Shown: positions 10,182 to 13,178 of the stretch, piece after piece
Position numbering within the stretch: position 1 is the stretch's first letter
Layout: every line of letters starts with the position of its first letter
Source: Batrachochytrium dendrobatidis JAM81
Lineage: Eukaryota; Chytridiomycota; Chytridiomycetes; Rhizophydiales
DNA length: 64,000 nucleotides
Assembly (NCBI RefSeq): GCF_000203795.2
Contig: NW_006281100.1
Location: 1,447,099 to 1,511,098, forward strand
Direction: 5' to 3'
The notes under the pieces: model-generated
Seen by the model: the letters and a program-made list of their open reading frames with translations, nothing else
Databases searched by the model: none
Told to the model about the DNA's origin: nothing
Position numbers and translations under genes: made by a program

Positions 10182-10272
10182 CTGTATGGTTTCAAATTAA
10201 AATTAAACAAACGATTAAGCAGTCGTCTAAAATGAAGATTTCAACCAAACACACAAGTATTTTTAACTACAT

Positions 10273-10924
10273 CCGTATCCATGTAAACCAATACACTAGA
10301 TAAGCATGTCAAAATCCATGATGGACAGTCTCATCAAATCATTGGTTTCAGTTTACTGGACGTTTACTGGACATTGTGTCCTCGAAACTCTTGGTTGACT
10401 GACTTTTCCCCCTTGTGCCCATTTTTGTATTAAAAACTGAGTTTTTGCATCGCAGTTTCAGTCAATCCTACGTTCTTGACACTTGTCCAATCTCCAACTC
10501 TTCAATCACTCAAACATCCAAACTAGACACTACAAGTAAACATTGCATGACCAGTATCCAAACTGCTGCATTCATGATACGTGCAACTTTTGTTCTGTTG
10601 AACTAAAGCGCGGACGTATCTGATATTTTAGAATACAGCAATAATGAGTTTGTAGAGTTTGATTGGCAACATCAAAACAGTCAACCGCAATATTTGGATT
10701 GCGATGGATGCATCTGGTTTCAAAATTGATGATCATAGCGTATGATCATATCAAAAAAGAACAGGTTCAAATCTATAGTTTGTATGCATCATATGATGAA
10801 TGTTTGAAAAACTGAAAATGTCAATGTGTAGTAGGAAAGTAAGGGAATATCTGACAATTGTCCATTCCAAAACAAACGACAATCACTGCGAGTGTTGCAG
10901 TTTACACGAATATGATTGTAAAAT
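10273..10924 (+). repeat. Inverted-repeat arm L: MITE-like element in Furry intron (family copy B)
   Basis: These 652 bp are the reverse complement of 12459-13110. Reading both arms I find two mismatches (10333 and 10687), so identity is about 99.7%. Both ends resemble the TIR of the dispersed family (TACATGGATACGG at one end, TTTACACGAATATGATTGTAA at the other). The element has no credible coding capacity: its longest frame, about 63 codons at 10415-10606, is duplicated exactly in the other arm and has no recognisable domain. It lies inside an intron, starting 92 bp beyond the Furry exon at 10181. Confidence 0.93.
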
Positions 10925-11052
10925 CGACTGGATTAGTTAGCATCGAATATCAAGTATTTGATTTTACAATTTTTGTAAAAGATGCTGTACACAGTTCAAG
11001 TCAAGTCCTGATGAATAAATTCCAACATATATAGTATGTATGCTAGAAATAC

Positions 11053-11455
11053 CTTGTAAAACCCAAGAAATCCTTCATTTTTGAGCGTTTTTGATCCACA
11101 GTCGATGACGCCAGTATATAGTGGTGCTTCCCGGGGTTGAGTTTGCAGACGGACTTTGACTGTATCAAATGGCTGATTAGCACGAATAAAAAACAAATTA
11201 ACACAATAATTCAATTTCACAGTTGGGCGATCGCATAAAACAATGGTGTAAGTGATAGCCATAGTAAACCATAACCAGCAAAATGGTCTTGCATTTGAAT
11301 CATATACAGCGACAGGAAAGTATTTTTGATAAAGATACAAAGTGCAGACAAGTACTTGCCTGACCAACTAAAACTTGTACAACACCACCAATGCTTCCAG
11401 CCAAAAGTTCTGTTGCAGTCTGATACTTATTCTTGACTGAATCCACACTGGCCAT
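11053..11455 (-). CDS. YMC1/YMC2-type mitochondrial carrier, 5' exons (split gene)
   Basis: Two exons, 11455-11360 and 11172-11053, encode the first 72 residues of a mitochondrial carrier (SLC25 family). The start is the ATG at 11455. Exon 1 carries the first transmembrane helix (ELLAGSIGGVVQVLVGQ). Exon 2 opens with the first signature, PFDTVKVRLQ, and ends in EGFLGFYK. The join Q|PFDTV requires a GC donor (CAG|GCAAGT) with a normal AG acceptor, because the nearest GT would break the frame. The second exon ends in phase 0 before GTATTT. The family needs three repeats; repeats 2 and 3 are on the plus strand at 13179-14063, so this fragment alone cannot make a carrier. Confidence 0.9.
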
Positions 11456-11898
11456 GATCTACACAAACTATTAACCGAACAAGTCGGATATTGAATAATT
11501 TTCAGTAAATTACAGTATCTGGCACGTGATTCTTGATTGGCTGGCGAGTGTTTAATACGATAAGCAATGCGGATAGAAAGAGTGAATGAGCAAGTCGTGC
11601 AGATGAACTTGATAGTAAGAGCAGTTCAGACTAAGTCTGGCATAACACTCCAAATACGAATAGATTGGATTCTGACACGATCGGATTGTTGGGCGAGATT
11701 TGGTCAAAAACAATCCATTGCAGTCTGTGTGGTGTGTACTGGACTTTGTAGCACATCAATAATCATTCTGTTTTAAAGTGCAGCAGATTCATATCGAGTT
11801 TAAATGAATGGCATGAACTGGTCGAGTCAAATATTCGACGTGAATTTCCTTAGACTTTCCACCACCATCAACTAAAGCATCCAAACAGCAGATTGTTA
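11456..11898. promoter_or_regulatory. Shared divergent promoter region of carrier and Furry 5' exons
   Basis: This is 443 bp between two divergent start codons: the carrier ATG at 11455 (-) and the Furry ATG at 11899 (+). It contains no other convincing gene; a 69-codon frame at 11567-11776 lacks features. Since it lies inside the inverted segment, in the present orientation it would drive the 5' exon of Furry towards the carrier body, and the carrier 5' exons towards the Furry body. No specific operator is recognised. Confidence 0.55.
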
Positions 11899-12429
11899 AT
11901 GGAAGGCTTCCAATTCCCTCCAAGAGATGAACATGTTCCACAGCAGAAACCCACTCCCATAGCTGAGCCTACTATTCTACAGCGACCTTTGAGGTCATTG
12001 AATAGTCTTAATTCCGGAAACAGTCCGACTTCTGCCAATGAAAATAGTGCTGCTGGTATCATCGATAATGATGTTTCTGCCAGACTCGGTCTATCTTCCG
12101 GATATCCTAATACGTCCATCCAGTCCGGCCCTGTGTCTGGATTCCAAACTACTTCAATACCGCCACGATCTTCTAGTGAAAAACTAAACGTATCCACTGC
12201 CGTCGATATAAACTCGACTTTGCCAGGCCTGTCTGTCATTTCTGCTTCTGCTCTTATAAATACACCCCCAACTGCATCTGCAAGACACTACACGGCTTTG
12301 GATCAGGAACTTTCATCATCGCTGGGTGCTATCAAAAGCAATGCAGTTCCAATTGTGCTGCAAGCCATATTCGCTAAATTCGTTCATGCTGCTGAATCTA
12401 AAGTTGACAGTCTCTTAAGCTATCAGTTG
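11899..12429 (+). CDS. Furry/Tao3/Mor2 N-terminal exon (split gene, inverted)
   Basis: This exon encodes 177 residues from the ATG at 11899; the frame is open slightly upstream but without an earlier ATG. Residues 1 to about 120 are Ser/Pro/Asn-rich and look disordered. The end is the conserved Furry opening block: SSLGAIKSNAVPIVLQAIF, then AKFVHAAESKVDSLLSYQL. The exon closes in phase 0 with a GTATGT donor at 12430. The next Furry exon, starting in phase 0 with DRDTDISSPL, is at 10181 on the minus strand. In the present layout the next acceptor on this strand is the carrier exon at 13179, also phase 0. Confidence 0.85.
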
Positions 12430-12458
12430 GTATGTCGTATCTAGCATCAACCTGTTAT

Positions 12459-13110
12459 ATTTTACAATCATATTCGTGTAAACTGCAACACTCGCAGTGA
12501 TTGTCGTTTGTTTTGGAATGGACAATTGTCAGATATTCCCTTACTTTCCTACTACACATTGACATTTTCAGTTTTTCAAACATTCATCATATGATGCATA
12601 CAAACTATAGATTTGAACCTGTTCTTTTTTGATATGATCATACGCTATGATCATCAATTTTGAAACCAGATGCATCCATCGCAATCCAAATATTGGGGTT
12701 GACTGTTTTGATGTTGCCAATCAAACTCTACAAACTCATTATTGCTGTATTCTAAAATATCAGATACGTCCGCGCTTTAGTTCAACAGAACAAAAGTTGC
12801 ACGTATCATGAATGCAGCAGTTTGGATACTGGTCATGCAATGTTTACTTGTAGTGTCTAGTTTGGATGTTTGAGTGATTGAAGAGTTGGAGATTGGACAA
12901 GTGTCAAGAACGTAGGATTGACTGAAACTGCGATGCAAAAACTCAGTTTTTAATACAAAAATGGGCACAAGGGGGAAAAGTCAGTCAACCAAGAGTTTCG
13001 AGGACACAATGTCCAGTAAACGTCCAGTAAACTGAAACCAATGATTTGACGAGACTGTCCATCATGGATTTTGACATGCTTATCTAGTGTATTGGTTTAC
13101 ATGGATACGG
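12459..13110 (-). repeat. Inverted-repeat arm R: MITE-like element in carrier intron (family copy C)
   Basis: This is the mirror copy of 10273-10924 over the full 652 bp, with two mismatches seen. It begins 29 bp after the Furry donor at 12430 and ends 68 bp before the carrier acceptor at 13177-13178. Just outside the arm the sequence continues as CGGCTGT, still TIR-like, so the element boundary may extend a few bases further. Confidence 0.93.
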
Positions 13111-13178
13111 CTGTGCACTACCCAGTTTTCGATTGCTAAATATATCTTCAATATACTATTTGATAACCATATATTTAG

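What the first reader, a model, noticed from the sequence alone, without database searches (positions are those of the whole stretch)
10182..13178. A 1.5-kb segment bounded by 652-bp near-perfect inverted repeats is flipped, splitting two unrelated genes
Arms 10273-10924 and 12459-13110 are reverse complements over 652 bp with two mismatches seen. Between them lie the first two exons of a YMC1-type mitochondrial carrier (minus strand) and the first exon of a Furry/Tao3 gene (plus strand). The remaining carrier exons (13179-14063, +) and Furry exons (10181-508, -) are outside and on the opposite strand. Inverting only the middle segment rebuilds both genes with conserved junctions (GFYK|GTLTPLLG in the carrier, LLSYQL|DRDTD in Furry), giving 301 and 3226 residues in continuous frame. 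Either a recombination-driven inversion has occurred in this nucleus, population or strain, or the assembler placed the segment in the wrong orientation between identical repeats.
Basis: partly seen in the sequence, partly recalled or inferred. Interest (0 to 1): 0.95.

Follow-up and report, generated by a model that had tools for sequence, protein, structure and literature searches.

The report
Flipped gene-start segment between transposon copies
In this genome copy of the frog-killing chytrid fungus, a 1.5-kb DNA segment holding the starts of two neighbouring genes lies backwards between two almost identical transposon-like repeats, either because the repeats recombined in the organism or because the assembly program placed the piece the wrong way round.

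Summary
Confirmed: arms 10269-10924 and 12459-13114 are 656-nt inverted repeats with 3 mismatches. Between them lie Furry/Tao3 exon 1 (+) and exons 1-2 of a YMC-type mitochondrial carrier (-); the other exons lie outside on opposite strands. The organism is Batrachochytrium dendrobatidis. Another assembly, probably long-read JEL423 V3, has both genes whole as neighbours (BDV3_005298, BDV3_005299); their residues match the window pieces with the seams at the arms. The window is flipped relative to it.

The arms are copies of a high-copy, non-coding repeat with 34-nt terminal inverted repeats (MITE-like), in Furry intron 1 and carrier intron 2. Elsewhere, local pairs of this repeat are 88-99.8% identical, while copies at different loci are mostly 64-77% identical. 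In L013 and L012, and weakly in L030, identity drops inside the element. This suggests ectopic gene conversion between old neighbouring insertions, the kind of recombination that can also flip a spacer.

Whether the flip exists in cells is undecided. The window assembly is probably JAM81 (Sanger), where such repeats can mislead assembly. A JEL423 V2 gene model holding Furry exon 1 alone weakly hints at a second flipped assembly. Mapping public long reads would settle it.

The parts
10267..10924 (.). Left arm: TIR-bearing MITE-like repeat inside what would be Furry intron 1 (identity tract 10269-10924; terminal inverted repeats 10267-10300 and 10888-10921)
12459..13116 (.). Right arm: second, inverted copy inside what would be carrier intron 2 (identity tract 12459-13114; terminal inverted repeats 12462-12495 and 13083-13116)
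10925..12458 (.). Flipped 1534-nt spacer: 5' ends of two divergent genes and the stretch between their start codons
11899..12429 (+). Furry/Tao3 exon 1, 177 codons, ends in phase 0; identical to residues 1-177 of BDV3_005299 and to residues 1-177 of the 178-aa BDEG_23313
11360..11455 (-). Carrier exon 1 (residues 1-32 of BDV3_005298), followed by a GC donor
11053..11172 (-). Carrier exon 2 (residues 33-72), ends in phase 0
13179..14063 (+). Carrier exons 3-5 (residues 73-301), outside the arms, strand opposite to exons 1-2
215..10181 (-). Furry exons 2 to last (residues 178-3285), outside the arms, strand opposite to exon 1; gaps between exon blocks about 75-88 nt

Best explanation
Two old copies of a high-copy MITE-like element sit in opposite orientation in intron 1 of Furry and intron 2 of the neighbouring, divergently transcribed carrier gene. 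Ectopic gene conversion has kept the two copies nearly identical (inferred from the pattern at other loci). A crossover between them inverts the 1.5-kb stretch that carries the shared upstream region and the 5' exons of both genes (inferred). The window shows such an inverted allele (not proven); another assembly, probably long-read JEL423 V3, shows the uninverted one (shown through its proteins). Because the four cut ends are all phase 0, the flip exchanges the two gene starts in frame: Furry exon 1 faces carrier exons 3-5, and carrier exons 1-2 face Furry exons 2 onward. The likely effect is loss of both normal products from that allele, tolerated while another copy is intact.
For: Exact piece-by-piece match of both intact proteins from another assembly, adjacent locus tags, seams at the arms. 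Each window arm carries the element's terminal inverted repeat at both ends (23 and 25 of 34 positions); the same scan gave a mean of 0.0 in 20 base shuffles of each of 12 sequences. For 4 of 4 arm queries the only near-identical full-length copy among the 40 best-scored candidates is the local partner, 0.7-1.5 kb away; every other listed match longer than 150 nt is at most 77% identical, shorter ones reach 93%. In one search, 15 of 38 other copies have a local partner at 95-99.8% verified from DNA; the flanks of 12 of the 38 were not read, so this is a lower bound. In L013 identity falls from 98.2% to 93 of 138 (z 6.2) inside the element, in L012 from 95.2% to 30 of 43 (z 4.1), in L030 from 97.7% to 68 of 98 (z only 2.1), with element ends still visible beyond the tract (18-26 of 34 TIR positions): conversion tracts in old insertions. 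JEL423 V2 carries Furry exon 1 as a separate 178-aa gene, BDEG_23313, as expected if that assembly is flipped too.
Against: The window assembly is probably Sanger-based, and its arms are about as long as a Sanger read (recalled). The same strain JEL423 is, if BDV3 is V3, uninverted in its long-read assembly. At 3 other inverted pairs where I could judge exon continuity by eye (L013, L030, L031), the spacer is in the expected orientation; the other 7 could not be judged. The orphan V2 model could be a predictor's failure to bridge a 772-nt intron in a gene whose other introns are about 75-88 nt, and its last residue fits acceptors in either order. PMC11797018 calls the older JEL423 assembly erroneous and reports many rearrangements between V2 and V3. 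No reads could be inspected. For L011 and L029 the stretches beyond the tract do not align better than chance, L031 only z 1.8; L009 shows no TIR at the cut-off.
Confidence: 0.5

Rival explanations
1. Assembly error: the 1.5-kb unique piece was set in the wrong orientation between two 656-nt near-identical repeats in a Sanger assembly. The repeats and their conversion are real, the flip is not.
For: The window's assembly has no exact (TTAGGG)4 (three internal near-matches to (TTAGGG)3), N50 1.484 Mb and size-ordered pieces. This does not fit RTP6, JEL423 V2 or V3, or CLFT044 and leaves JAM81, a Sanger assembly, as the likeliest. Arms this long can hardly be crossed by one Sanger read (recalled). 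The other assembly is uninverted. Spacers between shorter or more diverged arms (387, 398 and about 590 nt; L030, L013, L031) look correctly oriented. The older Sanger-based JEL423 assembly is described as erroneous (PMC11797018 abstract).
Against: Plasmid mate pairs should orient a 1.5-kb spacer (recalled). BDEG_23313 weakly hints that an independent Sanger-based assembly has the same flip. No N is found in the window or in the loci read by then, fewer gaps than such an assembly might show.
Confidence: 0.45
2. Recent transposition: the two arms are two fresh insertions of one element rather than old copies homogenised by conversion.
For: In the window, L014, L018 and L032 the identity tract covers the whole element.
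Against: No near-identical full-length copy elsewhere among the scored matches for 4 of 4 queries; tracts stop inside the element in L012, L013 and, weakly, L030; no target-site duplication evident by eye.
Confidence: 0.08
3. Pack-type element: the whole arm-spacer-arm unit is one transposon with long terminal repeats that captured gene fragments.
For: Long terminal inverted repeats around gene fragments resemble captured-gene elements (recalled).
Against: The fragments are exactly the missing 5' exons of the two flanking genes, and the spacers looked at in other loci hold other host sequence.
Confidence: 0.01

Closest known systems
Inversions mediated by inverted repeats in humans (PMC3961182, abstract and passages read)
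   Same: Inverted repeats flank a segment found in both orientations; recurrent inversion; genes at breakpoints can be disrupted.
   Different: Those repeats are 1.6-24 kb and the inversions 5.1-226 kb, 17 of 22 validated by inverse PCR. Here the arms are 0.66 kb and the segment 1.5 kb, known only from assemblies.
Galileo transposon inversions in Drosophila (PMC2775673, listing with start of abstract seen only)
   Same: Transposon copies act as substrates of ectopic recombination and generate inversions.
   Different: Natural chromosomal inversions there; here a micro-inversion between two introns that exchanges two gene starts.
Human 415-kb inversion that disrupts ZNF257 and makes a fusion transcript (PMC4591017, abstract read)
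   Same: An inversion breakpoint inside a gene and a fusion transcript from the inverted order.
   Different: Non-homologous end joining, one gene disrupted; here near-identical arms and a reciprocal, in-frame exchange between two genes, with no transcript data.
MITEs (short non-autonomous DNA transposons; recalled)
   Same: About 480-660 nt, no coding capacity seen, terminal inverted repeats, many diverged copies.
   Different: No transposase source or target-site duplication identified; local pairs are homogenised.

Membership tests
MITE-like repeat | terminal inverted repeats at both ends | tested here: met
   34-nt TIR at both ends of both window arms (23 and 25 of 34) and of both copies in L014, L018 and L032 (26-33 of 34); mean 0.0 in shuffles. 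In the other 8 loci scanned fewer ends pass, in L009 none
MITE-like repeat | high copy number, dispersed | tested here: met
   201-423 first-look candidates per query, the 40 best scored, on many contigs
MITE-like repeat | target-site duplication | tested here: inconclusive
   none evident by eye in the flanks printed
MITE-like repeat | mobilised by a related transposase | not tested
   no autonomous partner sought
Inversion between inverted repeats | two inverted near-identical arms | tested here: met
   656 nt, 3 mismatches
Inversion between inverted repeats | both orientations known, breakpoints in the arms | tested here: met
   window versus BDV3_005298 and BDV3_005299; the second orientation is known from proteins only, not DNA, and the window's could be an assembly error
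Inversion between inverted repeats | reads or molecules support the inverted order | not testable with these tools
   no read data held
Ectopic gene conversion | identity tract ends inside the homologous element | tested here: met
   L013 (z 6.2) and L012 (z 4.1), weakly L030 (z 2.1) and L031 (z 1.8); not shown for L011 (z 0.0) or L029 (z -0.5), 6 pairs examined. At the window locus itself the tract covers the whole element, so it is inferred there
Programmed invertible switch | site-specific recombinase and regulated, reversible flipping | not tested
   no recombinase sought; nothing in the data asks for one

The most novel reading that the evidence does not exclude
Conversion-homogenised inverted MITE pairs make parts of the B. 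dendrobatidis genome reversibly invertible: the segment between divergent genes flips recurrently during clonal growth, so a lineage carries a mix of normal alleles and in-frame 5'-exon-exchanged alleles, here fusing Furry and a mitochondrial carrier reciprocally.
Probability: 0.12. Interest if true: 0.85.

Novelty: new member of a known kind. Interest (0 to 1): 0.45.

Why it matters
If the flip is real, reference assemblies of one panzootic fungus differ by a micro-inversion that exchanges the starts of two conserved genes in frame, and the genome holds further repeat pairs able to do the same, a source of variation beside the loss of heterozygosity and aneuploidy already reported for it. If it is an assembly error, gene models at such loci in the Sanger-era references are wrong and can be listed from the repeat pairs.

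Tried and rejected
Organism and assembly: protein search gave B. dendrobatidis. The assembly is not named. RTP6 (63 contigs, N50 1,511 kb, 7 telomeric ends; PMC6284735, whole text read), JEL423 V3 and V2 (PMC11797018: Introduction, Methods, part 1 of 2 of Results and passages read; V2 excluded by its N50 of 1.70 Mb and by contig 1,803,316) and CLFT044 (PMC12204190: sections 6, 8, 17 and passages read; has telomeres) do not fit. CLFT067, CLFT071 and assemblies I do not know of were not excluded. JAM81 is the likeliest left: 24.3 Mb (PMC3207900, passages), Sanger (PMC6284735 names GCF_000203795; PMC12204190 gives that number to JAM81). That it has 127 scaffolds is recalled. The equation of BDV3 with JEL423 V3 rests on the prefix and on contig length 1,775,023 against the stated scaffold N50 of 1.77 Mb.

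Literature: the searches listed no paper whose title or shown abstract is about inverted repeats or this flip in Batrachochytrium; (MITE) returned papers on mites, the animals, and other topics. Open-licence papers only; supplements were not read. PMC11797018 does report many rearrangements between V2 and V3, without this locus in what I read.

A piece beside L009 that I read by eye as folylpolyglutamate-synthase-like first looked like another split gene; Pfam gave no family for it and several partial copies of that family exist in the genome, so it was dropped. A search with the human ERH protein found nothing, although two L009 pieces match Pfam ER, so that empty answer means little. FCF1 beside L011 (named by eye) could not be tested because its first exon seems to hold only the start codon.

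Full report
Observation. The window holds one near-identical long inverted repeat: 10269-10924 against 12459-13114, 656 nt with three differences, 1534 nt apart. The plus strand has Furry exon 1 (11899-12429) facing carrier exons 3-5 (13179-14063); the minus strand has carrier exons 1-2 (11455-11053) facing Furry exons 2 onward (from 10181). All four cut ends are phase 0, so even the order as it stands would splice in frame.

What the genes are. A search with the plus-strand reading as it stands identified the organism: the best hit is a 301-aa protein of Batrachochytrium dendrobatidis, BDV3_005298. Its residues 1-72 are the window's carrier exons 1-2 and residues 73-301 are exons 3-5, letter for letter. 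A search with two Furry open frames gave BDV3_005299, 3285 aa, whose residues 1-177 are the window's Furry exon 1, followed directly by exon 2; nine blocks match the minus strand down to position 215, leaving one residue (236) at an exon junction uncovered. The two tags are adjacent, and the relative B. salamandrivorans carries a carrier and a Furry with nearly adjacent tags (BASA83_004453 and 004451). In that other assembly both genes are therefore whole, and the window is flipped relative to it.

Which assemblies. The BDV3 proteins lie on a contig of 1,775,023 bases, fitting the 1.77-Mb scaffold N50 of the ONT and Hi-C assembly of JEL423 (PMC11797018, Results part 1). The window lies in a 23.49-Mb set of 33 pieces whose N50, from the lengths of 31 of them, is 1.484 Mb (the two unread ones share about 25 kb). 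The lengths fit size-numbered scaffolds in alphabetical order. There is no exact (TTAGGG)4 and there are only three internal near-matches to (TTAGGG)3. RTP6 (PMC6284735), JEL423 V2 and V3 and CLFT044 do not fit; JAM81 is the likeliest left, though CLFT067, CLFT071 and unknown assemblies were not excluded. JAM81's assembly is Sanger-based according to PMC6284735, so an assembly error is a live possibility.

A third assembly. Searching Furry exon 1 alone returned one protein, BDEG_23313 of JEL423 (V2 by its tag), on a contig of 1,803,316, 178 aa: exon 1 plus one residue. That residue and stop fit an acceptor inside the repeat arm, present in either order, and also a second acceptor that exists only in the uninverted order, so the residue does not tell the orders apart. 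An orphan exon 1 is expected if V2 is flipped too, but can also arise if the gene predictor failed to bridge a 772-nt intron; the other Furry introns are about 75-88 nt. I take it as a weak hint. In one search none of the 120 listed of 819 hits (candidates of 223-710 aa) covers more than 70% of the query, so no protein reading Furry exon 1 into the carrier was seen.

What the arms are. The arms match dispersed copies across the genome (201-423 first-look candidates per query, 40 scored each). The ends of the best-preserved copies (L032, L018, L014) show a terminal inverted repeat beginning TTACAGCCGTATTCACGTAAAATGGAACACTTGT; both window arms carry it at both ends (23 and 25 of 34), while shuffled sequence gave a mean of 0.0. 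In the other eight loci scanned fewer ends pass, and in L009 none. With the repeat subtracted, the two introns would be about 116 and 192 nt (from coordinates), in line with insertion into ordinary introns. I call the element MITE-like: no target-site duplication was seen by eye and no transposase was sought.

Local homogenisation. For each of four arms used as query, one other full-length near-identical copy is listed, 0.7-1.5 kb away; the other listed matches longer than 150 nt are at most 77% identical, shorter ones reach 93% (only the 40 best candidates are scored). Of the 38 other copies, 15 have a local partner at 95-99.8% confirmed from DNA; I read the flanks of 26 of the 38. I verified 11 inverted pairs, the window included (87.9-99.8%), and two direct pairs. 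L009-L014 were picked because they looked paired and L029-L032 because they looked inverted, so neither the rate nor the excess of inverted pairs is a measured ratio. In L013 the 98.2% tract ends inside the element, and the remaining stretch is 93 of 138 identical (z 6.2) with element ends visible in both copies (26 and, ungapped, 18 of 34 TIR positions). L012 (95.2% inside, 30 of 43 outside, z 4.1) agrees. L030 (97.7%, 68 of 98, z 2.1) and L031 (28 of 47, z 1.8) are weak, and L011 and L029 align no better than shuffles beyond the tract. Old insertions homogenised by ectopic gene conversion explain this best.

Mechanism. Gene conversion between inverted neighbours is the sister outcome of the crossover that would invert the spacer; this link is general knowledge, not shown here. 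The flip would exchange upstream regions and first exons of Furry and the carrier. Loss of both normal products from that allele is likely and tolerable in a diploid or polyploid (PMC11797018 suggests base tetraploidy with aneuploidy for JEL423; PMC6284735 calls the species diploid).

Real or artefact. For a real allele: the homogenised arms, the weak hint from V2, and the lack of N in what was read. For an error: the likely Sanger origin, arms close to Sanger read length (recalled), the uninverted long-read assembly, the description of the older JEL423 assembly as erroneous (PMC11797018 abstract), and expected orientation at three other loci judged by eye (L013, L030, L031; arms 398, 387 and about 590 nt; Pfam found no family in the two L031 pieces). 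At L009-L012, L015/L016, L029 and L032 orientation could not be judged. I put a real inversion at 0.5 and an error at 0.45.

Novelty. Inversions between inverted repeats or transposon copies are well known (PMC3961182; PMC4591017; PMC2775673 listing only). What would be new is the setting and the reciprocal in-frame exchange of two gene starts. My searches listed no report for Batrachochytrium.

Noticed in passing
L009:2965-4886; L010:2815-5116; L011:2957-5009; L012:3463-4935; L013:3334-5005; L029:2054-3308; L030:1896-3567; L031:1416-3486; L032:1618-5454; L015:4146-4797 with L016:4693-5347: Ten further inverted pairs of the same repeat family, 87.9-99.8% identical within the pair, spacers about 0.3-9.4 kb. 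L024 holds a minor one, 110 nt at 91%.
   Followed up: partly
L013:3732-5705: A signal-peptide-like exon lies between the arms and the rest of a secreted chitin-binding-type protein (named by eye) lies outside, in the expected orientation; a flip there would separate the two.
   Followed up: partly
L014:3058-5506 and L018:1351-4429: Direct pairs of the repeat, 99.7% and 98.4% identical; the L018 pair surrounds an open frame with DUF5092. Crossovers there would delete the spacer.
   Followed up: no
window 29781-30139 and 47352-47858; single ends near 18, 17220, 20205, 25997, 37494, 59522: Other copies or ends of the same TIR repeat in the window (at least 23 of 34 TIR positions).
   Followed up: no
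G000 C27, C10, C7; L009:2491-2841: Five dispersed 3' pieces of a folylpolyglutamate-synthase-like gene with stops inside; a further piece beside L009 is named by eye only, Pfam gave no family for it.
   Followed up: partly
window 11353-11359: The carrier's first intron starts with GC instead of GT.
   Followed up: no
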